From the NCBI GenBank assembly GCA_017625065.1, contig JAGALS010000050.1, forward strand, positions 1 through 32,340: a stretch of 32,340 nt of DNA. The letters are read 5' to 3'. The stretch's first letter is position 1. Every line of letters starts with the position of its first letter. Source of the DNA: Clostridia bacterium. Its GTDB lineage: Bacteria; Bacillota; Clostridia; Oscillospirales; CAG-272. Shown piece by piece: positions 8,091 to 25,482 of this stretch. The notes below the pieces were generated by a model that was not told the DNA's origin, did no database searches, and was given only the letters and a program-made list of their open reading frames with translations. The translations under genes and the position numbers were made by a program.

Positions 8091-8119
8091 TTGACAAAAT
8101 GCGCTTGTTATGATATACT
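8091..8119 (+). promoter_or_regulatory. Promoter of the TetR gene / export cluster
   Basis: TTGACA (8091-8096), exactly 17 bases, TATACT (8114-8119), downstream of a 100-base AT-rich stretch. It leaves a leader of about 125 bases before the TetR start. It is the clearest promoter before the SipW cluster. Confidence 0.75.
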
Positions 8120-8252
8120 TATCCATACCTATCAGCATTGGTTATATGTATTTAGCAAAAAATTGGGGGCTTTTTGCCAAATACGGACGTCGATGTGATT
8201 TTTTTTGGAGCGAATGTAGTAAACACTACAAATCGCGAGCTGGAGGAGAAAA

Positions 8253-8870
8253 ATGGCAGCGCAGCATGAGAAAATACGCGAGGCTCTGGTAGCCAACGCG
8301 ATCCATCTGATTGCCGTTGGCGGGTTTGAGAAGGCGACAACAAGGGAATTGACGCATTACGGCAGTGATCTGTTGGACTTCAAAATGAACGAGAGCTATA
8401 TCTACCGCCTCTTCGGAAGCAAGGAAGATCTGTACGAAAAGGCATTTGACCGCTTGGACCACGAGCTGTTTTATGCATTTCGGCGCGGTGTTGAGGCCGT
8501 TGGCGGCTTTGAGGGTGAGACGAAGCAGCGGCTCTACGAGTTCTTTTTGAGAGCCTGGGGCTTCATTTTGGGAAACGAGGAGCGCTGCCGATGCTACGTG
8601 CGGTATTATTACTCGGTCTACTTCAAGGGCAATTCCTTAAGGGCGCACAGAAAGCTGTTTAAGGGAATTGTAAGCGAAATGACCCCCATATTCAAGGAAG
8701 AGGCAGACGTTGAAGCCATTCTGCACAGCATTTTCACGGCGCTGTTCGATTTTGCGATCCGCGTGTACAACGGCGACCTCAGGGACGATGACATCAACAG
8801 ACCCCACATCTTCAATGTGCTTTACTGTATGATGATGACCTACCTAAAGGACCCTGTGAAAGCATCCTGA
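8253..8870 (+). CDS. TetR/AcrR family transcriptional regulator
   Basis: A 205-residue TetR-type regulator. The N-terminal helix-turn-helix is recognisable in residues 8-60: IREALVANAIHLIAVGGFEKATTRELTHY, then ESYIYRLFGSKEDLYEKAF, which matches the usual recognition-helix plus YxxFxSKExLxxxAF pattern. There is a longer than usual insertion between the two helices. The C-terminal 140 residues are the variable ligand or dimer domain, rich in aromatic residues. The start is set by GGAGGAG at 8242-8248. It lies directly upstream of the SipW cluster on the same strand, with 81 bases to the next gene. Control of the cluster is plausible but only inferred from position; no operator was identified. 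Confidence 0.88.
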   Translation: MAAQHEKIREALVANAIHLIAVGGFEKATTRELTHYGSDLLDFKMNESYIYRLFGSKEDLYEKAFDRLDHELFYAFRRGVEAVGGFEGETKQRLYEFFLRAWGFILGNEERCRCYVRYYYSVYFKGNSLRAHRKLFKGIVSEMTPIFKEEADVEAILHSIFTALFDFAIRVYNGDLRDDDINRPHIFNVLYCMMMTYLKDPVKAS

Positions 8871-8951: not shown

Positions 8952-9449
8952 ATGAACAAAAAAACCGTATTCATAATCATCTCAGCGCTTTTGATGTTGG
9001 GACTCATGGCAAGCATGCTGCTCATGCTTACGATGAAGGCACATGAGAATTTCCCCAAAAACATCAAGGTGCGGGAGGACGGCGTGACCGAGGACGTTTT
9101 CGCGATCCGGGATCTGCAGCTCTGCCCCACCGAAAGCAAGGAATACGAGATCGACCTTTTCTGCGACGCCAGCGGCGATTACAACATCACGATGGCGTAT
9201 GAGGAGCGCAAGCAAGGAACCATGAAGCACTACGTTGACGTCGTTGTGAAGGCAAACGGCGAAACGGTATACCAAGGCAAGCTTTCAAAATTGATCGACG
9301 GTAAAGAGATCGTGAGCTTTGACGGGACTCTTCTGGCAGAGCATCCGCTGACGGTTACAGTGACCTACACCATGCCCTATGAAACAGGAAACGAGGCGCA
9401 AGGAACCTCGGCAGACTTTGACATCCATCTCAAGATTCAAAAAATCTGA
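8952..9449 (+). CDS. Membrane-anchored exported protein of the SipW cluster, unknown function
   Basis: A 165-residue protein with a hydrophobic N-terminal segment (about residues 5-28, containing IIISALLMLGLMASMLLMLTM), then an all-beta-looking extracellular part. It lacks the TFA-[LW]-F-[ST] signature of the other cluster products, so it may remain anchored by an uncleaved signal. The segment LQLCPTESKEYEIDLFCDAS resembles the strand that begins TasA/camelysin-type folds (a Pro-Thr/Gly-Glu turn then alternating residues), but the similarity is weak. The start at 8952 follows GGAGAG at 8942-8947; an ATG 30 bases earlier has no site. It is 15 bases from the first signal peptidase. A minor subunit or cell-surface anchor is a guess. 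Confidence 0.75.
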   Translation: MNKKTVFIIISALLMLGLMASMLLMLTMKAHENFPKNIKVREDGVTEDVFAIRDLQLCPTESKEYEIDLFCDASGDYNITMAYEERKQGTMKHYVDVVVKANGETVYQGKLSKLIDGKEIVSFDGTLLAEHPLTVTVTYTMPYETGNEAQGTSADFDIHLKIQKI

Positions 9450-9464
9450 TAACAGAGAGGACTT

Positions 9465-10220
9465 ATGGAAAAGCAGAAATTGAAAAAAGCCGGCAAGATC
9501 ACGGTCGATGTGATCACTTATCTCTTTATCGTATTATGCGTGCTGGCAGTCGTTCTGGTGATCACCTCAAAACGGGATCCCGACGGAACGTCCACGATTT
9601 TCGGGAAGCAGATGCGATACGTGCAATCTCCCTCCATGGAAAAATGTGATGCGACCGACGTCAGTGCTTTTGAGATCAAGGACATCCCGATGCGGTCAAT
9701 GGTCTTTATTGAGACCGTGCCCGACGACCCTGCCAAGGCGGCCGAGTGGTATGCGAGCCTGAAGGTCGGTGACGTTTTGACATTTAAATACGTCTACGTC
9801 AGGCAAGAGACCATCACGCACCGTATCACGGCGATCGAGCCGAAGGAAACGGGCGGCTACATCATATCGCTTGAGGGTGATAACAAAAACAGCGAGGACG
9901 GCGCGCTCACACAGAAGATCGACACCTCGATCGAAAACAGCCCCAATTACATCATCGGTAAGGTGACGGGGCAAAATTATCCGCTGGGACTGCTGATCAA
10001 TGCGTTGAAATCCCCCGCAGGCATCGTTTGTATCATCATTTTACCGGCGCTTGCGATCATCGTTCTTGAGGTGATCAAGATCGTTAATGTGTTCGGTGCG
10101 GAGCGCAAGAAAAAGGACGATGAGGTCAAAGCGCAGCAACAAAGCGAGCTTGAGGAGCTGCGTGCGCGCCTTGCCCAGCTGGAAGCGAAAAACAATGAAA
10201 ACAATGGCGATAAGCCTTGA
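9465..10220 (+). CDS. SipW-type signal peptidase I, first copy
   Basis: A 251-residue signal peptidase of the SipW/ER type (Ser-His rather than Ser-Lys). An N-terminal transmembrane helix (17-35) is followed by QSPSMEK with the catalytic Ser57, then ETITHRI with His119, and LEGDNKNSED with the conserved acidic Asp139. A second membrane helix lies near 185-207, and the protein ends in a charged coiled-coil tail (210-251) on the cytoplasmic side. Such enzymes cleave the special signal peptides of TasA/camelysin-like proteins, six of which follow in this cluster. GAGAGG precedes the start. Gaps to its neighbours are 15 and 33 bases, consistent with one operon. Confidence 0.9.
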   Translation: MEKQKLKKAGKITVDVITYLFIVLCVLAVVLVITSKRDPDGTSTIFGKQMRYVQSPSMEKCDATDVSAFEIKDIPMRSMVFIETVPDDPAKAAEWYASLKVGDVLTFKYVYVRQETITHRITAIEPKETGGYIISLEGDNKNSEDGALTQKIDTSIENSPNYIIGKVTGQNYPLGLLINALKSPAGIVCIIILPALAIIVLEVIKIVNVFGAERKKKDDEVKAQQQSELEELRARLAQLEAKNNENNGDKP

Positions 10221-10253
10221 TATATATAAAAATTCAACAAAGGAGAGAAAAAG

Positions 10254-11090
10254 ATGCAAATGACTATGGAAATGCTGTTTATGGCTTTTATGGTGATCGT
10301 GACGGCTATGGCGTTGTTCGCCATTATGGTCGTGTTCCGCGACGTCGTAAATGAAGTCATTCACGGCAGAAGACAGCGCGAAAAGGAAACGCGCGACATC
10401 GTGGAAAGAGCAGAGCGTGTTGTCGCACAGGCACAGCTCCAGATGGAGCAGGCCGCGGCTTGCGTAGCTGCTGCTGAAGCGGAGCCCGAACCCGAACCCG
10501 TGCCGGTGATCGCCGAGCCCGTGGTCGAAGAGGCGCCCGTGGAGGAGCCCGCCCCGATCGAAGAAGCGGTTGAAGAGCCGGTTGAAGAGGTCGCAGCGGT
10601 CGAGGAAGCGGTGGAGGAGGCCGAAGCCGAGGACGACGAGGGTACGGTCAAGTTCTCCGCAGGACAAAAGCAGACGTTGGAAGAGAAGTATCTTGCGCTG
10701 TCTGCACAAGCAAGAGGCTGGTTTGATGAGATCATCAAGTACGCCTCTGCCGTTGAGGGAAGCAAGCGCTTCAAGAACGCCCGCTATGAGGAGTATAAGG
10801 TCGGTAAGAACCGTCTTGTACGACTGCTGATCAAGCGCGGCATCATTCACTGTGAGTTCATGCTGCAAAACAGCGACTTCAAGAACTACGTGAGTGAAAA
10901 CAAGATCTCCGTGCGCCAGGCGGCGACCACGATGCGCGTAGAAAACGAGGCGACTGTCGAAGCAGTGAAGAACAGTATCGACATTGCCGTGGCTGCCATC
11001 GCTGAGGAGAAGGAATACAAGAAGCAGCAGGCAAGAGAAAAGCGCAAGGCTGCCCGTGCGTTGGAAAACGCACAAAAGGAGCAGGCTTGA
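10254..11090 (+). CDS. Membrane coiled-coil protein with conserved cytoplasmic domain
   Basis: A 278-residue protein I cannot assign to a named family. It has one N-terminal transmembrane helix (about 6-28), a charged helix (35-70) and a Pro/Glu/Val/Ala-rich linker (about 78-128) of repeated EPV and VEE units. A compact domain follows (about 135-235) with the pattern FKNARYEEYKVGKNRLVRLLIKRGIIHCEFMLQN in outline. The end is a Lys/Arg/Ala/Glu coil (240-278). Positive charge after the helix places the bulk in the cytoplasm. It has a strong AAGGAGAG site and lies between a SipW peptidase and its substrates. A scaffold, chaperone or targeting role in their export is inference from position only. 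Confidence 0.8.
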   Translation: MQMTMEMLFMAFMVIVTAMALFAIMVVFRDVVNEVIHGRRQREKETRDIVERAERVVAQAQLQMEQAAACVAAAEAEPEPEPVPVIAEPVVEEAPVEEPAPIEEAVEEPVEEVAAVEEAVEEAEAEDDEGTVKFSAGQKQTLEEKYLALSAQARGWFDEIIKYASAVEGSKRFKNARYEEYKVGKNRLVRLLIKRGIIHCEFMLQNSDFKNYVSENKISVRQAATTMRVENEATVEAVKNSIDIAVAAIAEEKEYKKQQAREKRKAARALENAQKEQA

Positions 11091-11186
11091 TCCAAGGCTC
11101 TAGGCATTGATGTTTAGCATGAGGCAACTCATACTTTACATATAAAAAAGACAACTGCAAAATTTTAGAAGAAGGAGGTAAAGGCT

Positions 11187-11900
11187 ATGAAGAAGACGAA
11201 GCGAAGAAGCTTGGTTATGTCGGTTCTGATGCTGGTGCTTTCACTTGCACTTGTCGCAAGCGGAACCTATGCACTGTTTTCCGATCAAACCAAGATGACC
11301 AATCACTTGCAAGCAGGTAAGCTGGAGATCACGTTGGAACGTATTAAGCTGGAAAGAACAGAATTGGATTTGGTTACCGGCTACATGAAAGAGCAGCCCG
11401 TTGATGAAACCGTCGTTCCTTTCACGGATGAAACAACAGAAAACGTGTTTGGAATCACCGACAAAACGCTGATCGTGCCGCTTAGCACGTATACGGCGAC
11501 GATGAAGATCACGAACAACAGCGACGTAGCGTTTGGCTATTGGATCGAGATCGCGCTCAACTTTGAGGGCGAAAACGCGCTCGACGATGAAGAGCTTGCG
11601 GCATTGAAGCTTGATGAGCAGCTCAAGGTCTACGTCAACGACGAAGCGAAGGCTGTCACGTTGGATAAGGGGCTTAAGGTTGGCGATGAGGGAAATCCCA
11701 TCGGCAAGCTTGCCAAGGCACCGACACTTGACGGTAATGGCAATCCGTCGCATACGCTGAAGTACTTTGAGACCTTTGTTGTCAGTGTTTTGTTTGAAGA
11801 TCTTGACAACGAAGTCAACAACCTTGCACAAGGTCAAAAGTTGTGCTTCGATCTGATCGTTCACGCCGTACAGTTGACCGAAGAAGCACCCACCCCTTAA
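11187..11900 (+). CDS. TasA/camelysin-like secreted protein 1 (SipW-type signal)
   Basis: A 237-residue secreted protein. The N-terminus has KKTKRR, a hydrophobic core and the signature GTYALFSDQT, the SipW-class signal peptide, with probable cleavage after Ala29. The mature part resembles TasA/camelysin: an opening LQAGKLEITLERI strand, then STYTATMKITNNSDVAFGYWIEI, and a late FVVSVLFEDL strand. A strong AAGGAGG precedes the start. The 96-base gap upstream has no obvious terminator. Assembly into extracellular fibres, as in Bacillus TasA, is the likely role, but which cluster protein forms the main fibre cannot be told. Confidence 0.85.
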   Translation: MKKTKRRSLVMSVLMLVLSLALVASGTYALFSDQTKMTNHLQAGKLEITLERIKLERTELDLVTGYMKEQPVDETVVPFTDETTENVFGITDKTLIVPLSTYTATMKITNNSDVAFGYWIEIALNFEGENALDDEELAALKLDEQLKVYVNDEAKAVTLDKGLKVGDEGNPIGKLAKAPTLDGNGNPSHTLKYFETFVVSVLFEDLDNEVNNLAQGQKLCFDLIVHAVQLTEEAPTP

Positions 11901-11989
11901 ATGACAAGCAGGTCGCGCTTTTCGGACTTTCAGGCGCGAGCTGTGCACAACCAAGTCCGACATTATAATAATGAAAGGAAAAACCAACA

Positions 11990-13228
11990 ATGAAAAAGAA
12001 AGCATTGTTATCCTCGATCCTGGTCATCGCGCTTTGCCTTTGCCTGATCGCAGGAGGAACCTTCGCTTTGTTCACGGACAGCCATGAGCTGGACGTAGCG
12101 GTGACTGCAGGTAAGGTCGATCTTACCGCAGAATACGATACGGCTTCTATGCTGACCTGGTCCTCTTTGTACCACACGGAGAAGGACGCACGTACCGACG
12201 GTCTGTTTGACAACACCGGTACCGCAAAGTTTGTCACCGATGATAACGGTGAATACACCATCGTCGAGATCGACCGTATGACCCCCGGTGACGTTGCAAA
12301 GTTCAAGATCGATGTTGAGAACCTCAGCAACGTAAACGTGCAGTACAGAGTTCGTATGATCTCTCTTGCAGGCGAGCATGAGGTCGACCTCACCGAGGCA
12401 CTGACCATCACCGCTTACATCGACGGTATGAATTACCCCGTAACCGGCACCGAGAACGCCAGCGTTTGGCGCTTCATCGATGCAAATCAGCCCATCGAGG
12501 ATATCTGGGTGACCATTGCGTTCCGCAACACCCCCATGGACCTCAGCGACCTGAGCGTCGGCAACCCCGACAACAAGTATCAGGAGGCTCAGGCAAAGAT
12601 GGCATTCTTTGTTGAGGCTGTCCAGGGCAACGCGCAGACCTTCAATATGGTGACCGAGGAAGAGGGGCAGGCGGCTCTTATGGATCCCGCAACCGGCTAC
12701 CTTGCAAACTCCATTCACAACGGTGAGGGCGCAACCATCCCCGTAACCGAAATGCCTGTGAGCGGCGGCGCTGCTACCTTCTCCAACATTACGTTGGATT
12801 CCAGTAAGAGCACAGAATCGACCGTTCTTTGGGCTGTAGGCGACTCGACGGTTGTTCTTGCCGATCATGCAAATGTTATTGCTCCCACCGAGCCTTATGT
12901 TGATCCCGACGGTTATGTCTACAACACCTACGCTTATGCGGCAATGCTGGGCGAAGACGAGACCGCTACGCTTATCGTAGACGAGACCGCTTCGATCACT
13001 GCCCGCGGCAGCGAAGCAGTTGCAATCTTTGCTCAGGGCGGCACCTTCAACCTTGTGTTGAATGGCAGAGGCCTGATCAACATCGATCCCGGCGCAGTCG
13101 GACTTGGCTTCTCTAACTCGACCGTTCACATTTTTGTGGACAGCAGAGAGGCGATGAATGAGTACCGCGCAATGATGGAGACCATCAACGCTACCGTTTA
13201 CTGGTACATCGACGGCACTGCTGTCTAA
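11990..13228 (+). CDS. TasA/camelysin-like secreted protein 2 with beta-rich C-terminal extension
   Basis: A 412-residue secreted protein. Signal: MKKKALLSS, a hydrophobic core and GTFALFTDSHE, with probable cleavage after Ala26. Residues 27-235 form a TasA-like domain, with VTAGKVDLTAEYDT at the start and the central MTPGDVAKFKIDVENLSNVNVQYRVR pattern (Pro-Gly-Asp turn then strand). The C-terminal part from about 240 (GATIPVTEMPVSGGAATFSN, TESTVLWAVGDSTVVLADHANV and later repeats) has short strands like a small beta-helix. It ends EYRAMMETINATVYWYIDGTAV, with no anchor or LPXTG motif. GAAAGGA lies upstream of the start. It is a likely structural or accessory matrix subunit. Confidence 0.83.
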   Translation: MKKKALLSSILVIALCLCLIAGGTFALFTDSHELDVAVTAGKVDLTAEYDTASMLTWSSLYHTEKDARTDGLFDNTGTAKFVTDDNGEYTIVEIDRMTPGDVAKFKIDVENLSNVNVQYRVRMISLAGEHEVDLTEALTITAYIDGMNYPVTGTENASVWRFIDANQPIEDIWVTIAFRNTPMDLSDLSVGNPDNKYQEAQAKMAFFVEAVQGNAQTFNMVTEEEGQAALMDPATGYLANSIHNGEGATIPVTEMPVSGGAATFSNITLDSSKSTESTVLWAVGDSTVVLADHANVIAPTEPYVDPDGYVYNTYAYAAMLGEDETATLIVDETASITARGSEAVAIFAQGGTFNLVLNGRGLINIDPGAVGLGFSNSTVHIFVDSREAMNEYRAMMETINATVYWYIDGTAV

Positions 13229-13292
13229 TCTTACTTTCAAACACGCACAAACATAATTGCGAAACCCTAAAAATAACGGCAAGGAGGATATA

Positions 13293-13862
13293 ATGGCCCG
13301 TTCTCAAGTTAAAGTCAGAGCAATTATTATGGCGGCATTGACTATCCTGCTTTGCCTCTTATTCATCATTGGCTCGACGTTTGCATTGTTCACCGACAGC
13401 GACGGTAAGATCGGTATCAACGCGACAGCAGGTAATCTTGAGGTCGACATCATTGATGCATCCGACAACCCCAGCTCGCTGGTTGGTAAGACCTTGAATT
13501 TTGTCACCACGTCCGCACAGGATAAGATCCTGTTCGAGCCGGGCGCGGCGTTCTACACGCAGGGCTTCCGCGTGAAAAACAACGGCAACATTCCCTTGAA
13601 CTTCATTATTTATATAAGCGACGACAAGGAGACCGATGCCGATTTCCTGGACGCCTTCGAGGTATGGATCACAGACGATCCAAGCAGAACGATCGCGGAG
13701 CTGCCGGACTTCGACAAGCATCTTGACCGCGGTGAGACCAGTGACGTGTTTTATCTTGTCTTCCGTATGAAGGAAGATGTGGGCAATGAGTATCAAAACA
13801 GAACCTTCACGGGCGTGGGCGTTACGGTCTGCGCGGTGCAGGGAAACGTTAATATCGATTAA
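13293..13862 (+). CDS. TasA/camelysin-like secreted protein 3
   Basis: A 189-residue secreted protein, the simplest TasA/camelysin-like member here. The signal ends GSTFALFTDSDG, with likely cleavage after Ala31. The mature chain begins NATAGNLEVDIIDASD and contains FEPGAAFYTQGFRVKNNGNIPLNFIIYISDD, the usual turn-strand-Asn-Asn-Gly pattern of the family. The ATG at 13293 follows AAGGAGG (13281-13287); an upstream ATG at 13257 lacks a site. Its stop is only 11 bases from the second SipW gene, so the two are probably co-translated, which suggests a specific enzyme-substrate pair. Confidence 0.85.
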   Translation: MARSQVKVRAIIMAALTILLCLLFIIGSTFALFTDSDGKIGINATAGNLEVDIIDASDNPSSLVGKTLNFVTTSAQDKILFEPGAAFYTQGFRVKNNGNIPLNFIIYISDDKETDADFLDAFEVWITDDPSRTIAELPDFDKHLDRGETSDVFYLVFRMKEDVGNEYQNRTFTGVGVTVCAVQGNVNID

Positions 13863-13873
13863 AGGAGAAGATC

Positions 13874-14692
13874 ATGTCAAACGAAATAGCGAAAAAGGCA
13901 CTTGGCATTGTGACCAAGGTGCTGACGTGGATCCTCATAGCAGCCACGGTTTCTATGATGATCTTCACCATATTTTCGACACTCACCTTTGACAAAAACG
14001 ATCGAAGCCTTTTCGGTATCAGGTTTTACATCGTTTTGACCGACTCTATGAGCCCGTCGGAAAACAACAAGGACGACAAGATCCACTTCAATGCAGGTGA
14101 CATCGTTCTGATCAAAAACGTAAAGGATCCCACGGTTCTGCAGCCCGGTGACGTCATCGCGTTCGTTTCGCAAAACGAAGTCAGCTTCGGCGAAACGGTC
14201 ACGCATATGATCCGCGAGCGCAGAGAGACCACCGACGGCAAGCTGATCGGCTACGTGACCTACGGTACGAACACGGGAACGAACGACCAAACGATCGTTC
14301 AGCCCGAATACGTGCTCGGTCAGTATACGGGCAAGCTCCCCGGTGTAGGCAATTTCTTCGCGTTTTTGAAGACGACTCCCGGTTATATCGTGTGCATTCT
14401 GGTTCCGTTTTTACTGTTGATCCTGTATCAGGGTGTCAACACCGTCCGCCTGTTCAAGCGTTACAGACGCGAGCAGATGGAGGAAATGGATAAGGAGCGC
14501 GCGCAAATTGACGAGGAGCGTAAGCAATCTCTGGAAATGATGCGCGAATTGCAAGCCCTGCGCGAGCAGCTCGCCGCACAGCAATCGGGAGCGCAGGTCG
14601 CGCCCATGAATGGATCAGAATCAACGGCAGCTGCAGGCGAGGCAACCCCCGCAGCACCTGCTTCGAATGACTCTGAAGAGAACAAAGACTAA
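13874..14692 (+). CDS. SipW-type signal peptidase I, second copy
   Basis: A 272-residue signal peptidase unlike the first copy in detail. After an N-terminal membrane helix (14-36) comes LTDSMSP with the catalytic Ser58, then FNAGDIVLI, LQPGDVIAF and TVTHMIRE with His111. In the place of the usual GDxN box stands YGTNTGTNDQ (130-139), where an Asp survives at 138. A second helix (about 170-190) and a long cytoplasmic coil (195-245) follow, with an Ala/Ser/Glu-rich tail. It lies between three small substrates and the giant ones, so it may serve a different subset from the first enzyme. AAGGAGAAG precedes the start. Confidence 0.9.
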   Translation: MSNEIAKKALGIVTKVLTWILIAATVSMMIFTIFSTLTFDKNDRSLFGIRFYIVLTDSMSPSENNKDDKIHFNAGDIVLIKNVKDPTVLQPGDVIAFVSQNEVSFGETVTHMIRERRETTDGKLIGYVTYGTNTGTNDQTIVQPEYVLGQYTGKLPGVGNFFAFLKTTPGYIVCILVPFLLLILYQGVNTVRLFKRYRREQMEEMDKERAQIDEERKQSLEMMRELQALREQLAAQQSGAQVAPMNGSESTAAAGEATPAAPASNDSEENKD

Positions 14693-14734
14693 ACATAGTT
14701 CTTCGTAAGAAGAACGTCTTAGAGAGGATTAAAA

Positions 14735-17488
14735 ATGAAAAAAACATATTCTACGAAAAAAGCCTTGATTGTAAGCGCGCTTTCGCTGTTCCTTTGCATT
14801 GCGATGCTTGCAGGCTCCACCTTTGCGTGGTTCACGGACTCCGTGAAGAGCGAGAACAACATCATCCAGACCGGTAATCTTGACGTTGCGATGTACTGGG
14901 CAGAGGGTGGCAAGGATGTTCCCGCAGTAGGCGATGCAGCTTGGATCGACGCTTCCAAGGGCGCTATATTCAACCATGGCAACTGGGAGCCCGGCTATAC
15001 TCAGGCAAGACACATTCTGATCGCCAACGAGGGCAGCCTTGCACTCAACTACAGGTTGCGCATCGTAGCCAACGGCGCTGTCAGCAAGCTTGCTGACGTC
15101 ATCGACGTTTACTACGTAAAGGACACGACCCAGGCGATCGGCCGCGACCTTAAGGGCTGCACCAAGATCGGCACCCTGACCCAGGTTTTGGGCACTGCCT
15201 TCAACCTTTCCAATACCGTTAACGGCAGCTTGACCGCAGGCACTACCAACACATGGAGCCTGGTGCTTAAGATGCAGGAGACCGCTGATAACGATTATCA
15301 GAGCATGGATCTTGGCTGCACCTTCTCTGTTGAGCTGACCGCTACTCAGATGGCACATGAGGAAGATAGCTTCAATGAGAAGTACGATGAGCAGGCTCCC
15401 ATCGCCGATGTTCCCGCCGCTCTGGTAAGACCTCTGGTCGAGCTTGCCGTCAGCACCGACGGACCTTTGACCAACCAGGTCGGTGGCGTCGATCTTTCTA
15501 CGCTCGGCGTTGGCGAGCTTGACGTGGGCTACAAGTTCGAGCCCACTATGTCCCTTGAGGAAGCTAAAGAGTCCGCTTACAGATATTGGCATGCTGACTT
15601 TGTCGTAAAGGCAGACAGCAATGTGGCTGCCAACAGCATGGCATTGGCAGGCTACTACAATGCATGGTGTCAGTATAATGATAACAAGTGGATCGCTCTG
15701 GTATCTCCCGAAGATATTGCCGCCAACACCGAGATCCGTCTCGTTAATTCTATGGGCGGCGGTGGAATCACCGTAAACTGGGAGGAACTTTGTAACTACG
15801 GCAACGACGGCATTGGCTTCCAGTGCGGTGCCGTTGACGTTGACGGCTCCAACGAGGGTACCACCATCACCGTTGAGTTGCGTATGTATGAGACCTATCC
15901 CGAGGGTCAGTGCCCCGAGGATCACAACGGTCATAAATCCAAGAACTGCGAGACCGGTAACTACATCACCGTTGGCGTATTCACCCACACCTTTGGCGGT
16001 GATTACGAGACGCTTGATGACGGCACCGTGGTATTCAATCAGCTCGAGGGCGGCGTTGTTCTTTACGACACCTCCGATGTGACTGCAACCGACTACACCG
16101 TTCCCGCAGGCGTAACCGCGTTTGGTGCTGGTAGCATTAACGGCAACTTCAAGACCGTTACGATTCCCGCAACCGTTACCGACTTTGCTGCAACGGGTGT
16201 CAGCGCAACCGGTGCAAGCGGCGGCGCGTTCAAGGGCTCTGCCGTTGAAACCGTTGTACTTTCCGAGGGCATGACCGAGATTCCCGCAGCCGCGTTCAAC
16301 GGCGCGAAGAACCTCAAGTCCGTGAACATTCCTTCCACCGTTGATACCATCGGTGTAAACGCATTCAGACAGACCGCTATTACGGAGCTGACCATTCCCG
16401 CTACTGTTAAGAACATTAGCACTGGTTCTTTCCGTGATATGACCGCTCTTACCAAGGTAACGGTTGAAGGTAACGTAGCATTTGAAAACTATGCGTTCAG
16501 ATCTGTTCCCAACCTGACCCAAGTTTATCTGCTAGGTGACGACGTAACCTTTAACGGTAGCCAGTTTGCATGTCACTCCGATAATGGTGACGCAACCGGT
16601 ATTACCATTTATGTAGCAAACGCAACTGTTGCGGCTCGTGTTTATGCTGCGCAGGCATCGGCATACGGCTATGAGGTCAAGGTCCTCGGCGCTGCCGCTG
16701 ACGGCTCTGATGCCGATGAGGTTGTTAAGGCGACTAATACTGCCACTCTTAGTAGTGCTATTAACAATGGCACCGAAACCATTGTTCTTGGTGCAGGCAA
16801 CATTGAAATGCCCAGCAGCAATACAAATGCCAATATTACTATCGCCGGCACCAAGGATACCGTCCTTGATGTGACCAAGGGTGCTTACATGGACAGTGCC
16901 AACGTAACCATTACTGGTGTGACGATCAAGACCAGCACCGGTTATGTTATGGATGCAAACGGCAATAAGGGTTCTGACTACGCAGCTCTGTACTCTCCCA
17001 ACACCACCTATGTCAACTGTACTTTTGTTGGTCCTATGAGAGTGGGTCGTGACGGTGCTAAGTTCATCAAATGCACCTTCACTGAACTGGGCAATGACTA
17101 CATTTGGACTTACGGTAACGACGTAACCTTCGAGGGTTGTACCTTCAATACCGACGGTAAGGCAATTCTCATTTACAGCGATGGTGGTAACGAGGTTTCT
17201 CAGGTTACTGTGAAGGACTGCGTCTTTAATTCCACTCAGGGTGCGAAGGCCGGCGCAATCAATAACCAGAACTGTGCAGCCATTGAAATCCATAACTATG
17301 GCAACGGTGTGAATCTGACCACCTCCGGCAATACCTATGATTCCAACTTCTCCGGCGAGTGGAGAATCAAGACCTATGAGTCCGGCAAACCCAAGATCTT
17401 TGTTAACGGTGTCGAGTATACCACTATTGCTATCGATGGCAAGACCATGACCATCGATGCTAATAAGGATGTTACTGTTAACGAGTAA
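14735..17488 (+). CDS. Giant secreted protein: SipW signal, TasA-like domain, BspA leucine-rich repeats, beta-helix
   Basis: A 917-residue secreted mosaic. Signal: KKTYSTKKALIVSAL, a hydrophobic core and GSTFAWFTDSVKSENN, with likely cleavage after Ala31. Residues 32-210 are TasA-like (QTGNLDVAMYW; WEPGYTQARHILIANEGSL). A further beta region runs to about 445. Residues 447-618 are BspA/LRR_5-type leucine-rich repeats (FKTVTIPATVTDFA; SVNIPSTVDTIGVNAFRQT; LTIPATVKNISTGSF). Residues 670-915 look like a right-handed beta-helix, with repeated NCTF, KCTF, GCTF and DCVF turns. There is no LPXTG or C-terminal helix, so attachment would have to be non-covalent. A small hairpin (14698-14715) and AGAGG precede the start. 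An adhesin or matrix component is likely. Confidence 0.85.
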   Translation: MKKTYSTKKALIVSALSLFLCIAMLAGSTFAWFTDSVKSENNIIQTGNLDVAMYWAEGGKDVPAVGDAAWIDASKGAIFNHGNWEPGYTQARHILIANEGSLALNYRLRIVANGAVSKLADVIDVYYVKDTTQAIGRDLKGCTKIGTLTQVLGTAFNLSNTVNGSLTAGTTNTWSLVLKMQETADNDYQSMDLGCTFSVELTATQMAHEEDSFNEKYDEQAPIADVPAALVRPLVELAVSTDGPLTNQVGGVDLSTLGVGELDVGYKFEPTMSLEEAKESAYRYWHADFVVKADSNVAANSMALAGYYNAWCQYNDNKWIALVSPEDIAANTEIRLVNSMGGGGITVNWEELCNYGNDGIGFQCGAVDVDGSNEGTTITVELRMYETYPEGQCPEDHNGHKSKNCETGNYITVGVFTHTFGGDYETLDDGTVVFNQLEGGVVLYDTSDVTATDYTVPAGVTAFGAGSINGNFKTVTIPATVTDFAATGVSATGASGGAFKGSAVETVVLSEGMTEIPAAAFNGAKNLKSVNIPSTVDTIGVNAFRQTAITELTIPATVKNISTGSFRDMTALTKVTVEGNVAFENYAFRSVPNLTQVYLLGDDVTFNGSQFACHSDNGDATGITIYVANATVAARVYAAQASAYGYEVKVLGAAADGSDADEVVKATNTATLSSAINNGTETIVLGAGNIEMPSSNTNANITIAGTKDTVLDVTKGAYMDSANVTITGVTIKTSTGYVMDANGNKGSDYAALYSPNTTYVNCTFVGPMRVGRDGAKFIKCTFTELGNDYIWTYGNDVTFEGCTFNTDGKAILIYSDGGNEVSQVTVKDCVFNSTQGAKAGAINNQNCAAIEIHNYGNGVNLTTSGNTYDSNFSGEWRIKTYESGKPKIFVNGVEYTTIAIDGKTMTIDANKDVTVNE

Positions 17489-17794
17489 TTTCTAACTTTC
17501 CCCGGTCCACCCCTTCGGGGGTTGGGTGAAAGAAGCCTTCTCCAGCAGGGGGCTGTTGTCGCATAGCGACAACGTTGAGTTTGCTACGCAAACATCACGT
17601 GTCACGCGACCGCGTGACGGATGAGGAGAGCCGGTTCGTACAGCACAAAAGGTGTTCTCCTCATCCACCGCAAGCGGTCCCCCTTCTCCGCTGGAGAAGG
17701 CTGGGCGAAATCTCAACCCCTTCGGGGGAGGAAAAACCAAACAAAAATCACATTCCTTTATAGTCGAGCGATCGACACAACATACAAGGAGATT
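17489..17794. repeat. Intergenic structured repeat between the two giant genes
   Basis: This 306-base gap holds a composite palindromic element. AGCCTTCTCCAGC (17534-17546) is matched by its exact complement GCTGGAGAAGGCT (17690-17702). Outside these lie CCCC-TTCG-GGGG hairpins with the stable UUCG loop, at about 17512-17523 and 17719-17730. Smaller inverted repeats such as GTTGTCGCATAGCGACAAC, and CGCG-rich ones, fill the middle. A 62-codon open frame inside is not convincing. I see no transposase and no clean terminator. The ribosome site AAGGAG (17786-17791) for the next gene closes the gap. Confidence 0.7.
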
Positions 17795-20700
17795 ATGAAA
17801 ATGAAAACTATGAAAAGCACGAAGCGCTCGCTGCTGATCAGCGCACTTTCGCTGTTCCTTTGCGTAGCAATGCTTGCAGGAACGACCTTTGCGTGGTTCA
17901 CGGATAGCGTTTCGTCCAAAAACAACATCATCACGTCCGGTAACCTTGACGTCGAGCTCTACTGGAGTACTGATGCCAAGAACTGGGACAAAGTCGATGA
18001 AAACGATGAGATCTTTAAGGATGAGACCCTTTGGGAGCCCGGCCACACCGAGGTCGTTTACCTCAAGGTCGAGAACAAGGGATCTCTCTCGCTGAAGTAT
18101 CGTCTTGGCGTGAATATCGTTTCCGAGGATAGCGGTATCAACGCGGCAGGCGACGTCTTCTTCCTGTCTGACTACATTCAGATGGGCGTGGATTTCCAAG
18201 GCGCTGAAAACAAAGGCCCCTTTGCAGATCGCAAGGCTGCGATCGCCAAGGTCGAAAGCGCCGCAACGAAGATCTCCGCAGGCTACTCCAAGAGCAGCGT
18301 TCTGTACTCCGCAAACAATGCAGAGAAGCGGACCAGCGCAGAATACGCAGCACTTGTTGTGTATATGCCTGAAACGGTTGGCAACGTTGCAAACCACCAG
18401 ACGGGAACCAATCCCCCTGCGATCCAGCTTGGTCTGGACGTCTTCGCAACCCAGTATACATACGAAGAGGACTCCTTCGGTGCTGACTATGACGCAGGCG
18501 CACCTTGGGTAGGCGAGGCAGATACGACTTGGTATGATGCTTCCAAGGACGAGTTTACGCTGTCGACCGGCGCACAGCTTGCAGGCCTTGCTGAAATCGT
18601 CAACGCAGGCGATTCCTTTGAGAAAAAGACCGTGAAGCTTGATGCTGATATCGATCTGAACAACGTCAATTGGACCCCCATCGGTACAAAGGCAGCTCCC
18701 TTTAAGGGCACCTTCCTTGGCCAGGGTCACACCGTTTACAACCTGAAGTCGGTTGGCGAGAAGAGAGTTGGCTTGATCGGTGCAACCTGGGTTGGCGCAC
18801 ACATCGAGGGCGTTAACGTCGTGAACGCATACGTTTCCGGTAACGACTACGTCGGCGTTATCGTCGGCGGCGGTTACCTGGCTGCAAACTGCATCAAGGG
18901 TTGCTCTGTTACAAATGCGACTGTTATCGCGATGCCTTATCTGATGGCTAACGGCGAATACGACGGCGGCGCTAAGGCCGGCGCTATCGTTGGTCAGGCT
19001 TACAACGGCAGCCTGATCGGCAACACCGTTAAGAACGTGAACATCATGGCTTACAGAGACCTTGGCGGTATCGCAGGTATGCTGGCATTTGACGGCCCCA
19101 ACGGTGCGGTCGAAGCATCCGGCAACACCGTTGAAAGCGTTAGTTTGAGCTACGTTGGTGTTGCGGGCAAGTATGCTGACAACACGCCCAACCAGAATAT
19201 GGGTGACATCGTCGGTCGTGTCGGCAACAAGACCGTTGTCGCCAACGACAACAAGGGCGAAGCAGTCAAGAACGAAAAGGATCTTGGCGCTATCATGATC
19301 TTCACCCTTGACGAGCTGATCAACTTCGCAAAGGAAGTCAACGGCGGCAACACTTATGTCGGCAAGACCGTTATCCTTGGCGCTGATATCGACCTGTTGA
19401 ACATGGAGTGGACGCCTATCAACGGCTTCCAGGGTACGTTTGACGGTAATGAGAAGGTCATTTCTAATTTGAAGATCACCGGCAATAAGAGCGACGTTGG
19501 TTTCTTTGGCAAGGTCAATGCTGTAGAGATCAGAAATTTGACCGTTCATAACGCGACTGTTTCCGGCCGTTTGGATGTCGGTGTTGTAGCAGGCCATCCT
19601 TGGACTGCCAAGTTTACCAACATTGCTGTAACCGGTCACGTAGAGGTCAACGGCTTCGCTTACGTTGGCGGCGTCGGCGGTAAGAATGCTTACGCAAACT
19701 GGACCAATGTCACCGTTGACGTTGATGATACCTCTTACGTCAAGGCAATTTCTACTGAGAACGGTAAGAAATACCGCTCCTATGTGGGTGGTGTAGTTGG
19801 CTTCAATGGCGAGGGTGCCCACACCTTCAAGAACATCACCACTAACATTGACGTTATCGGTGACGTTTGCGATATCGGCGGTGCTTTCGGTATTGGCCAC
19901 TACGAAAACAAGTTCGAGAACGTTACCGTTACCGGTAATGTTACCTGCACCGGCAATGCTGACGAGATCGGCGGCATCCTCGGCGTATGGCACAACCAGG
20001 ACGGCACCTCCGTTCATCTGACCAACTGCAAGTTCACCGGCAAGATCACTGCCGCTGACGGTGCTGTGACCGATTGCGACTTGGTCGGCGGCGCTTACAC
20101 CACCACCGGTACCGGTGTGCTGGTCATCGACGGCAAGGACGCCGAGGGCAACTGGGCAGTTACCGACACGGCTTCTTTGGAGAGCGCTATCTCCAAGGGC
20201 GGCGATGTGAAGGTATACAATGATGTCAAAACTTCCGAAACCATTACCATTGCTGAGGGTGCAGATGTCACCATCGACCTGAACGGCAAGACTGTATCGG
20301 GTAACAAAGCCAAGAATAATGGTGCGGTTCTTGTGAATAACGGCACACTTACCATTACCGGCGGTACTATCGCTAACAAAACCACAAACGGCGCTTCTGT
20401 TATTGAAAACAAGGGTACTATGACGCTTGACGGTGCAATCGTTGAAGGTGCACCGATGAACCAGAGCGGATATCCTGCATATGCGATATTGAGCTACGGC
20501 AAACTCACGATCGAAGAAGGTACTAAAATCCTTGCAAACCGTGGCGGTATTTCCACCTGTAACGAGACAGGTGTGGATTACGGCAAGACCGAGGTTGTCA
20601 TCAATGGCGGCAGTGTTGTGGTCTCCAATGCGGCTGACGGTCGCAATATGACCCTGCACACCATTTATGCTTATGGTAAGAATACCGAGTTGACCATTAA

Positions 20701-21685
20701 CGGCGGTTATTTTGAAATGGGACATACCTCTACCGGCGGTGCGAGCGTTATTTGTCCCGCAGGTGCGAAAATCAACATCTATGGCGGCGATTTCCGCGAT
20801 GCTATGGATGATGACACTTGGACGAGTACGGGTAACTTCCAAAACTATATGGGCTATAATGTAGCACTCAATGTTCAGGGTGGTACTTATGACGACAAGA
20901 CTGTTGCGAAGAATCTCGCGAGCGGCTACGAAGTTGTAGAAGCTAACGGCTTGTACTATGTAGCTGCTAAAGGAACGGCCAAGGCTGCTGCCAGCGCTGA
21001 AGAAATGGCTGATGCCATCGAGGCAGGCGCAGATACGGTCATTCTGCCTGCCGGCGACTATGTCATTCCTGCTGCTGCAAAGGGCAAGACCTTGAAGATC
21101 ATTGGCAATGGCGAGGATACCAAGGTTGCTGTTAAAAAGGTCGGTACCGGTGGTGAGAACTGTGACTACGGTCTGGACGGTTCCACTGTTGTGTTTGAAG
21201 ATCTTACGATCACCACCAACAGCTCCACTTACATTGGCTATGCCCGTTGCAATGCGACCTACAACAACTGCATCATCAACGGCACTTATACCTTGTATGG
21301 CAACAGTGTATTTAATGGCTGCACCTTTAACGTAAGCGGTGACGTTTACAACATCTGGACTTGGGGCGCACCCAATGCCACCTTCAACAACTGTACCTTC
21401 AATTCCGACGGTAAGGCATTGTTGCTTTACGGTACGGCAAACACCAATCTGACTGTTAACAACTGCGTGTTCAACGATAACGGCGGTCTCACCGACCTGA
21501 AGGCTGCTATCGAGATCGGTAACGATTATGGCAAGTCCTATACGCTTACCGTTAACAACACCACTGTAAACGGCTACGAGATCAACGATAAGGGCATCAA
21601 TACCGGCTCCACCCTTTGGGCGAACAAGAACTCTATGGGTACCGATAAGCTCAACGTTGTGATCGACGGCGTTGACGTTTACTGA
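17795..21685 (+). CDS. Giant secreted protein: SipW signal, TasA-like domain, GLUG repeats, beta-helix
   Basis: A 1296-residue secreted mosaic, the largest product in the window. Signal: MKSTKRSLLIS, a hydrophobic core and GTTFAWFTDSVSSKNN, with probable cleavage after Ala33. Residues 34-230 are TasA-like (ITSGNLDVELYW; WEPGHTEVVYLKVENKGSL). Two GLUG-type modules start near 245 and 498, each with a QLAGLAEIVN-like helix, KLDADIDLNNVNWTPIG and FKGTFLGQGHTVYNL, then repeats such as GNDYVGVIVGG and FAYVGGVGGKN. Residues 800-1060 are beta-helix-like. Residues 1070-1296 resemble the end of the 917-residue protein (GCTFNVSG; FNSDGKALLLYG). The start at 17795 has AAGGAG; the frame is open 174 bases further up, but that region is repeat DNA. 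No wall anchor is seen. Confidence 0.87.
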   Translation: MKMKTMKSTKRSLLISALSLFLCVAMLAGTTFAWFTDSVSSKNNIITSGNLDVELYWSTDAKNWDKVDENDEIFKDETLWEPGHTEVVYLKVENKGSLSLKYRLGVNIVSEDSGINAAGDVFFLSDYIQMGVDFQGAENKGPFADRKAAIAKVESAATKISAGYSKSSVLYSANNAEKRTSAEYAALVVYMPETVGNVANHQTGTNPPAIQLGLDVFATQYTYEEDSFGADYDAGAPWVGEADTTWYDASKDEFTLSTGAQLAGLAEIVNAGDSFEKKTVKLDADIDLNNVNWTPIGTKAAPFKGTFLGQGHTVYNLKSVGEKRVGLIGATWVGAHIEGVNVVNAYVSGNDYVGVIVGGGYLAANCIKGCSVTNATVIAMPYLMANGEYDGGAKAGAIVGQAYNGSLIGNTVKNVNIMAYRDLGGIAGMLAFDGPNGAVEASGNTVESVSLSYVGVAGKYADNTPNQNMGDIVGRVGNKTVVANDNKGEAVKNEKDLGAIMIFTLDELINFAKEVNGGNTYVGKTVILGADIDLLNMEWTPINGFQGTFDGNEKVISNLKITGNKSDVGFFGKVNAVEIRNLTVHNATVSGRLDVGVVAGHPWTAKFTNIAVTGHVEVNGFAYVGGVGGKNAYANWTNVTVDVDDTSYVKAISTENGKKYRSYVGGVVGFNGEGAHTFKNITTNIDVIGDVCDIGGAFGIGHYENKFENVTVTGNVTCTGNADEIGGILGVWHNQDGTSVHLTNCKFTGKITAADGAVTDCDLVGGAYTTTGTGVLVIDGKDAEGNWAVTDTASLESAISKGGDVKVYNDVKTSETITIAEGADVTIDLNGKTVSGNKAKNNGAVLVNNGTLTITGGTIANKTTNGASVIENKGTMTLDGAIVEGAPMNQSGYPAYAILSYGKLTIEEGTKILANRGGISTCNETGVDYGKTEVVINGGSVVVSNAADGRNMTLHTIYAYGKNTELTINGGYFEMGHTSTGGASVICPAGAKINIYGGDFRDAMDDDTWTSTGNFQNYMGYNVALNVQGGTYDDKTVAKNLASGYEVVEANGLYYVAAKGTAKAAASAEEMADAIEAGADTVILPAGDYVIPAAAKGKTLKIIGNGEDTKVAVKKVGTGGENCDYGLDGSTVVFEDLTITTNSSTYIGYARCNATYNNCIINGTYTLYGNSVFNGCTFNVSGDVYNIWTWGAPNATFNNCTFNSDGKALLLYGTANTNLTVNNCVFNDNGGLTDLKAAIEIGNDYGKSYTLTVNNTTVNGYEINDKGINTGSTLWANKNSMGTDKLNVVIDGVDVY

Positions 21686-21701
21686 TCCTAACCAAAAACC
21701 A

Positions 21702-21768
21702 CCCAACCCCTTCGGGGGTTGGGCGGCAATCAAAGAACACAAGGTACACTTGTGCTCCTTGATTGCCG
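21702..21768 (+). repeat. Tandem hairpins before the last SipW-cluster gene
   Basis: CCCAACCCC-TTCG-GGGGTTGGG (21702-21723) is a perfect 9-bp stem with a UUCG loop. It is followed at once by a 20-bp stem with two A-C mismatches, in which CGGCAATCAA (21724-21733) pairs with TTGATTGCCG (21759-21768). There is no T run, so it is not a standard terminator. It could stabilise the end of the giant mRNA or tune expression of the next gene. Confidence 0.65.
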
Positions 21769-21800
21769 AAGCAAAAATCAAAAGACAAGGAGGAAATGCT

Positions 21801-22373
21801 TTGAATACACAAAAGAATACCGAAAAGCTCACCGACAAGGCGTTTTCTCGCTTGTGGATCACCTCTATCGTTGGCATCCTGATCTGCATCGCTTGCCTTT
21901 GCTCCACGACCTGGGCGTGGTTTAGCGCCGATCAATCGGCAGAGGGCAACACCGTGCAAAGCGGAAACTTTAACCTTGATATTTCGGTCACGAAGGAGCA
22001 GAGCTCCTCGACCGTTGAATCAAGAGAGCAGACTCTTGGCGATATCGAGATCACGGAGCTTTCAAACGGAAAGCTGTCTTGCACGCTTGAAAAAGGGCAG
22101 TACACGGTCGTTTTGAAGACAACACCGGACACGACGGTCTCCAGGGGCTTTTGTAAGATGATGGTCGGGGAGACGGCATATTACACCGATTCCATCAGCA
22201 CCGATGCGACGGACTCCTTCACCTTTACACTTGACGTGATCGAGGACGGCACCACGGTCCTCTTCTCGCCCGCGTGGGGCGTTCCCGCCGAGGTGGACGT
22301 TGAATGGAACAAAACGCTTCAGATCGGCACTGCAACCACTGTCGCACAGCAAGAAACAGAACAACAAGAATAA
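21801..22373 (+). CDS. TasA-like secreted protein with SipW-type signal, TTG start
   Basis: A 190-residue protein with a longer N-terminal region (residues 1-18), a hydrophobic core (ITSIVGILICIACLCS) and the signature TTWAWFSADQS, with likely cleavage after Ala39. The mature part begins VQSGNFNLDISVTKE, as in the other cluster members, and stays beta-rich. It ends Gln/Glu-rich. The TTG at 21801 is the best start: AAGGAGG (21788-21794) lies six bases before it. The ATG at 21796 is out of frame, and the next in-frame ATG upstream overlaps the previous gene. It is the last gene of the cluster, closed by a terminator at 22379-22410. A minor or capping subunit is possible; the function is unknown. 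Confidence 0.82.
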   Translation: MNTQKNTEKLTDKAFSRLWITSIVGILICIACLCSTTWAWFSADQSAEGNTVQSGNFNLDISVTKEQSSSTVESREQTLGDIEITELSNGKLSCTLEKGQYTVVLKTTPDTTVSRGFCKMMVGETAYYTDSISTDATDSFTFTLDVIEDGTTVLFSPAWGVPAEVDVEWNKTLQIGTATTVAQQETEQQE

Positions 22374-22378
22374 TCTCA

Positions 22379-22410
22379 ACGGGCTGACCGAATGGTCAGC
22401 CCGTTTTCTT
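22379..22410 (+). terminator. Terminator of the SipW cluster
   Basis: AACGGGCTGACC and GGTCAGCCCGTT form a perfect 12-bp stem with a short loop, followed by TTCTTT. Confidence 0.88.
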
Positions 22411-25319: not shown

Positions 25320-25482
25320 AAGGCTCCCTTGTCGCAAAACAAAGAAGCCTTTGGCTTCTTTTTGAAGAACGCGTTGCGTTCTTCGTGGAGCATATCGCGA
25401 AGCGACTGAAGGATTGTTTTTTGGGGTGTGTACAATCCCTCCGCCTCGTTCCTCGGCACCTCCCTTTACACAAGGGAGGCTT
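25320..25482 (+). repeat. MITE-like structured repeat, copy 2
   Basis: The same element as at 619-791, in the same orientation, with ends AAGGCTCCCTTGT and ACAAGGGAGGCTT. The left 80 bases are almost identical between copies; the central loop between GGATTGT and ACAATCC differs in length and sequence (GTGTTGGTTTGATT versus TTTTGGGG-type). There is no convincing ORF. Confidence 0.85.

What the first reader, a model, noticed from the sequence alone, without database searches (positions are those of the whole stretch)
8952..22373. Expanded SipW/TasA-like export cluster with two dedicated signal peptidases and six substrates
Seen: six proteins carry the same signal signature ([GST]T-[FYW]-A-[LW]-F-[ST]), two SipW-type peptidases with Ser and His in place are interleaved with them, and all genes run on one strand between a TetR gene and one terminator. 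Known: the Bacillus TasA/SipW system makes biofilm fibres with one peptidase and two main substrates. Inference: this is a much larger extracellular fibre, matrix or adhesin system that combines small fibre-like subunits with giant repeat proteins. I do not know of a described system with this make-up.
Basis: partly seen in the sequence, partly recalled or inferred. Interest (0 to 1): 0.78.

Follow-up and report, generated by a model that had tools for sequence, protein, structure and literature searches.

The report
Twin signal-peptidase surface-fibre gene cluster
An uncultured Clostridia bacterium carries two linked kits for exporting fibre-type surface proteins, each with its own signal peptidase, and relatives appear to swap the end domains of these proteins between the two kits, suggesting an exchangeable system for gripping surfaces.

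Summary
The window has exactly six copies of the stated signature, all in this cluster, two ER-type (SipW-type) peptidases, one strand, a TetR-like gene and a closing terminator-like hairpin.

It is not one enlarged TasA operon but two joined modules. Module A is g2-sipA-g4-S1-S2; module B is S3-sipB-giants-S6. Each occurs without the other beside it, and both occur joined. The peptidases form two separate clades. After the inferred cleavage site, substrates downstream of sipA start with Leu (47 of 47 L/I/V) and those downstream of sipB with Trp (59 of 63); loci not used before agree. N-terminal camelysin-type domains never cross between the two classes (0 of 133 best hits); C-terminal passengers do (27 of 111).

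Best reading: two donor-strand fibre chassis with separate peptidases and interchangeable passengers. Secretion, fibres, adhesion and peptidase specificity are inferred from homology, not shown. I rate it a new variant of the SipW/TasA kind.

The parts
8091..8119 (+). promoter-like site (TTGACA-17-TATACT, TG before -10) upstream of the TetR-like gene
   Evidence: consensus scan, 11 of 12; prediction only
8215..8230 (.). perfect inverted repeat TGTAGT-AAAC-ACTACA, candidate TetR operator
   Evidence: by eye a similar TGTAG[TC]nnnnACT element precedes tetR in 8 of the 9 loci printed, window included (not in L178); 4 further loci asked had no tetR frame
8253..8870 (+). TetR-like regulator
   Evidence: TetR_N 20.7 bits, below cut-off 24; 67-75% identical orthologues in the same place in G019, G194, G198, G208_C10
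8952..9449 (+). g2: one N-terminal TM helix plus a beta-sandwich related to the substrates, without a cleavable SipW signal; proposed membrane tether
   Evidence: AlphaFold2 model, mean pLDDT 88.3, helix 3-30 then strands; hhalign to giant N-domains 95.7%, E 1e-8, to S1 95.9%, E 6e-9, over the domain without the signal; no Pfam camelysin match in 17 of 17 members
9465..10220 (+). sipA: ER-type (Ser/His) signal peptidase, long cytoplasmic tail
   Evidence: SigPepSipWBacil E 1.1e-15, below equivalog cut-off; clade of its own, support 100; Ser57, His119 and the GDN Asp in 72 of 72
10254..11090 (+). g4: N-terminal TM anchor, acidic/Pro-rich linker, probably cytoplasmic C-terminal domain; in relatives the slot carries other domains, among them ribosomal L15-like (PF00828)
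   Evidence: no Pfam family for the window copy at E<=0.1, two chance-level matches (0.64, 0.95) at E<=1; one NCBIfam match over the linker, 15.7 bits against a cut-off of 1259
11187..11900 (+). S1: small SipW substrate, inferred mature start LFSD
   Evidence: PF12389 1.9e-8, TIGR04088 27.5 bits
11990..13228 (+). S2: SipW substrate with a variable C-terminal passenger, inferred mature start LFTD
   Evidence: PF12389 2.2e-8; TasA model 7.7e-8 over residues 3-78, 32.1 bits against cut-off 450
13293..13862 (+). S3: small substrate directly before sipB (module B), inferred mature start LFTD
   Evidence: TIGR04088 14.8 bits, below cut-off; in the 77 named loci S3 was labelled only where sipB follows
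13874..14692 (+). sipB: second ER-type signal peptidase with a long cytoplasmic tail
   Evidence: TIGR02228 60.9 bits, over cut-off; SigPepSipWBacil 1.8e-22, below cut-off; separate clade, support 81
14735..17488 (+). S4: 917-aa substrate, camelysin-type N-domain, LRR_5, beta-rich C-terminus; inferred mature start WFTD
   Evidence: LRR_5 2.2e-20, PF12389 8.1e-6; LRR part matches adhesin model HupY, 27.7 bits against cut-off 1250; AlphaFold2 model, mean pLDDT 68.8
17489..17794 (.). intergenic stretch built from dispersed genomic repeats
   Evidence: 37 matches in the own genome including itself, some being both strands of one site
17795..21685 (+). S5: about 1296-aa substrate; inferred mature start WFTD
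   Evidence: TIGR04088 21.1 bits; PF12389 24.9 bits in the genome scan, 19.7 in the protein scan; AAGGAG before 17795
21801..22373 (+). S6: small last substrate (TTG start), inferred mature start WFSA
   Evidence: TIGR04088 22.7 bits in genome scan, 18.7 in protein scan
22378..22405 (+). intrinsic terminator-like hairpin closing the cluster
   Evidence: 12-bp stem, 8 G-C pairs

Best explanation
The cluster joins two SipW/camelysin export-and-assembly modules, probably under one TetR-type regulator. In module A, SipA cleaves S1 and S2 before Leu-Phe. In module B, SipB cleaves S4, S5 and S6 before Trp-Phe, and also S3, which begins Leu-Phe. Cleavage frees an N-terminal segment that, as in TasA, acts as a donor strand inserting into the next subunit's beta-sandwich. 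The giant proteins are the same fibre subunit carrying a C-terminal passenger (LRR or other beta-rich repeats), so they ride in or on the fibre as adhesins without a wall anchor. The different first residue and a one-residue shift in strand register keep the two chassis apart, while passengers are exchanged between them by recombination. Membrane-anchored g2 tethers or starts the module A fibre; g4 is a cytoplasmic-side adaptor near SipA. Shown here: gene order, clades, family membership, residue pattern, passenger similarity across classes. Inferred: cleavage site, secretion, fibres, specificity, adhesion, roles of g2 and g4.
For: Modules found apart and together. In 294 other genomes sampled from the family, 12 of 14 with sipA also have sipB, against 41 of 294 overall (hypergeometric 8e-10; one, G329, is a doubtful 38% match; without it 11 of 14 against 40, 2e-8). 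SipA and SipB are separate clades. First residue after the inferred site: 47 of 47 L/I/V after sipA, 59 of 63 W after sipB; in the 59 of 77 named loci not used before, 116 of 122 L/I/M after sipA and 8 of 8 W after sipB. N-domain best hits cross class 0 of 133, passengers 27 of 111; the 3' end of window S5 is 74% identical over 633 aligned bases to an L-class S2 of G127. PF12389 in 25 of 25 giant N-domains and 16 of 16 S2 N-domains; S1 and giant N-domains hhalign 99.4%, signal included. A conserved Gly lies at +15 in S1 (64 of 66) and S2 (48 of 58) and at +16 in module B giants (53 of 56). In B. subtilis TasA the mature protein starts at 28 and donor-strand residues include F29 and F39 (PMC10151520, PMC9674648, passages), that is +2 and +12; here +2 is Phe in 57 of 66 S1 and +12 is Leu in 63 of 66. 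B. cereus TasA and CalY are reported not to work in B. subtilis without their cognate SipW (PMC4292775, passages).
Against: No experiment. S3 has Leu but sits before sipB, and in loci with sipB and no sipA on the contig the proteins before sipB have L 11, W 5, I 1, V 1, A 1 of 19, so the residue is not a strict peptidase code. L231 has three Trp-type substrates after sipA with no sipB in the held DNA. Other SipW genes also have mostly Trp substrates (37 of 58). The residue is inherited with the N-domain: only 7 changes on the N-domain tree, so the counts are few independent events. Passengers still group partly by class (27 crossings against about 56 in shuffles) and none crossed inside one contig. 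PDB profile searches by sequence found no TasA for S1, giant N-domains or g2, and no fold search could be run. Of the seven relatives' proteins, six substrates gave no Pfam passenger family at E<=0.001, so 'adhesin' rests on LRR_5 in S4 and on general knowledge. No single transcript is shown.
Confidence: 0.57

Rival explanations
1. One enlarged TasA-type matrix system with two redundant peptidases; the Leu/Trp difference is only ancestry of two paralogous N-domain families.
For: Only 7 label changes on the N-domain tree; S3 is Leu-type beside sipB; all genes run in one direction behind one regulator gene with one closing hairpin.
Against: The modules occur apart, the peptidases are separate clades, and passengers cross while N-domains do not.
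Confidence: 0.22
2. The giants are ordinary secreted or wall-bound adhesins that use SipW only for export; only the small proteins, if any, make fibres.
For: The PDB sequence search found no TasA; the S4 model has residues 35-50 without regular structure at low confidence; S4 carries a large LRR part.
Against: The camelysin-type match is kept in 25 of 25 giant N-domains, and giant N-domains align with S1. No wall-anchor family was hit in S4 or S5.
Confidence: 0.16
3. A spore-surface or developmental structure rather than a vegetative adhesin.
For: B. cereus TasA is also called spore coat-associated protein N (PMC13082335, passage).
Against: No sporulation gene was recognised among the window genes scanned; not tested further.
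Confidence: 0.05

Closest known systems
Bacillus subtilis tapA-sipW-tasA
   Same: ER-type SipW, camelysin-type beta-sandwich subunit, conserved segment straight after the cleavage site; a small protein gene directly before the peptidase gene and fibre-type genes after it, like S3-sipB-giants (PMC10151520, PMC9674648, passages).
   Different: One peptidase and two substrates there; here two peptidases of separate clades, six substrates, giant passenger-bearing subunits, a TetR-like gene, membrane proteins g2 and g4.
Bacillus cereus sipW-tasA, capP (bc1280), calY
   Same: Several camelysins and an assembly factor processed by SipW; hetero-filaments (PMC13082335, PMC4292775, passages).
   Different: One SipW; no giant passenger proteins and no second module in the passages read.
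Clostridium perfringens sipW-bsaABCRSD
   Same: Clostridial SipW operon with several secreted proteins; BsaA polymerises and needs SipW (PMC7395162, passages). 3 of 18 S1 members match the BsaA model at E<=0.01.
   Different: One SipW, two-component control; no twin module in the passages read.
Second SipW locus of the same genome (G000 contig C31, L019)
   Same: SipW followed by four small proteins with SipW-type signals and a 1560-aa protein.
   Different: Its peptidase lies outside clades A and B; by eye all four small substrates have Tyr after the inferred site.

Membership tests
ER-type signal peptidase (SipW/Sec11) | Ser and His catalytic residues in conserved boxes | tested here: met
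   S and H in 158 of 158; SEC11A match 2.7e-10
ER-type signal peptidase (SipW/Sec11) | First Asp of the GD[NA] box | tested here: inconclusive
   Kept in 72 of 72 SipA; Thr in 57 of 59 SipB, which keep the later Asp in 58 of 59
Bacillus SipW equivalog (NF046067) | Score over the NCBI equivalog cut-off | tested here: not met
   57.7 and 79.8 bits against 190: relatives, not Bacillus SipW equivalogs
SipW-dependent signal peptide (TIGR04088) | Score over cut-off in all six substrates | tested here: inconclusive
   S1, S2, S4, S5 over cut-off; S6 22.7 in genome scan but 18.7 in protein scan; S3 below
Camelysin/TasA family (PF12389) | Family match over cut-off | tested here: met
   S1, S2, S4 over cut-off; S5 below in the protein scan but over in the genome scan; not met by S3 and S6, which have no match
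Camelysin/TasA family (PF12389) | Match across the whole domain, not the signal region alone | tested here: inconclusive
   Window proteins match profile positions 3-79 at most; of three relatives with a match shown, one covers 6-165 of 196
TasA fibre (donor-strand assembly) | Fold of TasA by structure comparison | not tested
   Fold search never accepted a job
TasA fibre (donor-strand assembly) | Polymerises by N-terminal donor strand | not testable with these tools
   needs experiment
TasA equivalog (NF046066) | Score over cut-off | tested here: not met
   S2 32.1 bits and S1 15.1 against 450
BsaA family (TIGR04090) | Score over cut-off | tested here: not met
   S1 12.8 bits against 60

The most novel reading that the evidence does not exclude
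Two mutually exclusive donor-strand fibre systems run side by side in one cell, each gated by its own signal peptidase and strand register, and both draw on one shared, recombining pool of adhesin passengers: a Gram-positive, sortase-free surface-display kit that can re-load the same sticky domain on either fibre.
Probability: 0.33. Interest if true: 0.8.

Novelty: new variant of a known kind. Interest (0 to 1): 0.6.

Why it matters
If right, TasA-type fibres are not only a biofilm scaffold but a carrier for interchangeable adhesins in uncultured gut Clostridia: the 77 named loci with sipA are titled Clostridia, Clostridiales, Oscillospiraceae, Firmicutes or Bacillota, and by my count 52 of the 77 titles name a herbivore or its gut (41 sheep, goat, cattle, buffalo, yak or deer samples, 3 reindeer, 8 'Lapin', which I read as rabbit). 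It makes two questions directly testable: whether SipW peptidases have substrate classes, and whether the first residues of the donor strand decide which subunits polymerise together.

Tried and rejected
Sequence-profile searches of solved structures for TasA: none for S1, giant N-domains or g2. Fold comparison of the g2 and S4 models: ten tries met a full queue and one library was absent. The Leu/Trp residue as a strict peptidase code: rejected, since S3 and loci without sipA break it. One enlarged operon: rejected as the main reading because the modules separate. The S4-S5 gap as a special element: it is dispersed genomic repeat. Passenger exchange inside one contig: 0 hits, so it is seen only between contigs. 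A second window-type g4 domain in the own genome: only a weak hit over the linker (E 0.097). SipA clade outside the family: in an order sample of 394 genomes, at E<=1e-20 only, 7 matched; 3 strongly (E<1e-100, the own genome and two of its family) and 4 weakly (E about 1e-22 to 1e-23), one of them G038, whose protein is nearest SipB. SipW relatives on plasmids, sought for an annotated TasA to compare: 23 records, none taken further. Literature: ten searches listed no title or abstract start on a twin-SipW cluster; some listings were partial (25 of 29, 20 of 26, 20 of 50, 8 of 9) and the library is open-access only.

Limits of the counts: ORFs in scripts are mechanical, and signals were found by a score that leaves out the first mature residue; only ORFs passing it are counted. 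One search has 204 rows: 47 after sipA, 63 after sipB, 19 before sipB with no sipA, 58 after other SipW genes, 17 in none of these. Exceptions after sipB: H, L, T, I once each; the T (G226) looks like a misplaced site. The 18 named loci that overlap earlier material gave 43 of 43 L/I/V after sipA, W 17 and Y 1 after sipB, W 3 of 3 before sipA. In one search two S1 genes (L186, L205) were labelled g2 and two S2-position genes (L193, L197) S4 by best hit. Cross-class counts use only proteins classed L/I/V/M or W. One linear locus end can hide a partner module, and many of the genomes are incomplete.
Full report
What is there. The window is contig C40 of a 1.99-Mb, 88% complete genome. From 8952 to 22373, all on +, lie ten genes after a TetR-like gene: g2, sipA, g4, S1, S2, S3, sipB, S4, S5, S6, then a strong terminator-like hairpin and a cardiolipin synthase gene. 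A genome scan with TIGR04088 finds nine sites, six here and three in another SipW locus on contig C31. The two peptidases belong to the ER type: Ser and His invariant, and a profile of 15 matches SEC11A. They are far below the Bacillus SipW equivalog cut-off.

Two modules. Of 59 genomes searched with SipB, the own one included, 31 have some SipW homologue. I fetched stretches around some of these. They show g2-sipA-g4-S1-S2-S3-sipB-giant in G001, G014, G019 and G020 of the same genus; G004 has g2-g4-S1-sipB-giant without sipA. Around sipA orthologues in the family the joined form recurs in G130, G194, G198, G208 (two loci) and G062, while G247, G283, G127, G318, G123, G329 and G296 have module A without sipB beside it, and G272 is too short to tell. 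G027, G051, G055 and G038 have sipB with no sipA beside it. In the 77 named loci found with SipA, sipB follows on the held DNA in 18, in all 18 directly after S3, and S3 was labelled in no locus without sipB. Many contigs end early, so absence is weak evidence. In a sample of 294 other family genomes 14 carry a sipA orthologue (229 bits or more, next best 62.6) and 41 a sipB orthologue (114 bits or more, next best 84; weakest cases G329 and a split G117). Twelve carry both (p 8e-10; 11 without the doubtful G329, 2e-8): so sipB is without sipA in 29 of 41 and sipA without sipB in 2 of 14 (G247, G283). On a FastTree tree of 158 peptidases A and B each fall on one side of a branch, support 100 and 81. 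SipB has Thr where SipA and most others have the first Asp of the GD box, 57 of 59.

The first mature residue. The cleavage site is inferred by comparison with TasA, whose mature form starts at residue 28 (PMC10151520, passages). With a score that leaves out the residue after the site, substrates downstream of sipA and before any sipB have L 44, I 2, V 1 of 47; those downstream of sipB have W in 59 of 63 (H, L, T, I once each); those before sipB with no sipA on the contig have L 11, W 5, I 1, V 1, A 1 of 19; those after other SipW genes W 37, Y 15, F 4, T 1, R 1 of 58; 17 rows fit none of these. Of the 77 named loci 18 overlap material already used. The other 59 give, in 52 loci with substrates, L 112, M 2, I 2, F 1, T 1, W 3, P 1 of 122 after sipA, W in 8 of 8 after sipB, W in 2 of 2 before sipA, and one L far from sipA. 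The three W after sipA are all in L231, where no sipB is held. The pattern is strong by position but is inherited with the N-domain: the N-domain tree needs only 7 changes (8 without the first three residues). It is not a pure peptidase code, because S3 has Leu. The strand itself also differs: the conserved Gly is at +15 in S1 (64 of 66) and S2 (48 of 58), at +16 in module B giants (53 of 56), and at +18 in S3 (15 of 19). TasA donor-strand residues F29 and F39 (PMC9674648, passages) correspond to +2 and +12; S1 has Phe at +2 in 57 of 66 and Leu at +12 in 63 of 66. I therefore favour fibre specificity, with peptidase preference as a possible second reason. B. cereus TasA and CalY are reported not to work in B. 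subtilis without their cognate SipW (PMC4292775, passages), so SipW-substrate matching has a precedent.

Passengers. Of 290 substrates (179 L-class, 111 W-class), 137 have more than 100 residues beyond the N-domain. Best hits on other contigs (E<=1e-10): N-domain 0 of 133 cross class; passenger 27 of 111 cross. Shuffled labels give about 67 and 56 crossings, so passengers are shared across classes but not freely mixed. The clearest case for the window: a 223-residue stretch at the end of S5 is 77% identical to an L-class S2 of G127 (74% over 633 aligned bases at the 3' end), with no N-domain match at that threshold. No crossing was seen inside one contig. Exchange by recombination is the inference; loss or common ancestry of passengers was not modelled. 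What the passengers bind is unknown: S4 has LRR_5, whereas six giant or S2 proteins of relatives scanned gave no Pfam passenger family at E<=0.001.

Fold. PF12389 matches 25 of 25 giant N-domains and 16 of 16 S2 N-domains. Where positions were printed (S1, S2, S4, S5; three relatives), six of seven stop at profile position 79 or before and one covers 6-165 of 196. S1 and giant N-domains align at 99.4%, signal included; g2 aligns with S1 over the domain alone. Sequence profiles did not find TasA in the PDB and fold searches could not be run, so 'TasA fold' rests on Pfam and alignment. The S4 model (mean pLDDT 68.8) has the signal helix at 7-34 and residues 35-50 without regular structure, as expected for a strand lacking its acceptor, but low confidence would look the same.

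g2 and g4. g2 is related to the substrate domain on an uncut membrane helix (model 88.3), though no member matches PF12389. It could hold the base of the fibre or serve SipA; this is inference. g4 has a conserved N-terminal membrane segment and linker, and a C-terminal part that changes between genomes: PF00828 (ribosomal L15) in 6 of 10 scanned; by clustering of 77 loci, 58 with a slot ORF, one group of 35 with the window type, one of 10 with the L15 type, one of 3, ten singles, and 19 loci without a slot ORF by my rule (single linkage, so joins through the linker are possible). Five of the six genomes with a slot L15 domain also show a separate L15-sized match. The charge pattern suggests the domain is cytoplasmic (my reading). 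Why an export operon needs it is unexplained.

Regulation. A perfect inverted repeat lies at 8215-8230 before the TetR-like gene; similar elements precede tetR in 8 of 9 loci by eye. One transcript is not shown; the S4-S5 gap of 306 bases is dispersed repeat.

Verdict. Known kind: SipW-processed camelysins. New here, as far as the ten literature searches show: the twin-peptidase composite, giant passenger-bearing camelysins in two non-crossing chassis, and passengers shared between them.

Noticed in passing
window 10254-11090 slot; L100:6185-6703, L101:5988-6527, L105:14484-15035, L107:12797-13330, L109:6200-6727, L110:5366-5902: In these relatives the gene between sipA and S1 is a membrane-anchored protein ending in a ribosomal L15-like domain; five of the six such genomes also have a separate L15-sized match. 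Function unexplained.
   Followed up: partly
L019 (G000 contig C31) 5946-9506: Second, simpler SipW locus in the same genome with four small substrates, all with Tyr after the inferred site, beside a 1560-aa protein; in G019, G014 and G020 small proteins with similar signals lie downstream of the twin cluster, in G019 with a SipW gene.
   Followed up: partly
window 17489-17794: Dispersed repeat sequence between S4 and S5, 36 other matches in the genome, some being both strands of one site.
   Followed up: yes
window 619-719 and 25320-25420: Two copies of a 101-nt repeat, 96% identical.
   Followed up: no
window 24195-24506 and 24969-25223: Two small paralogous proteins beginning MGIKAFFKNAF; the first has no NCBIfam match at E<=0.1.
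   Followed up: no
G198:C153 and G123:C137: L15-like domains inside open frames of 1898 and 1330 aa.
   Followed up: no
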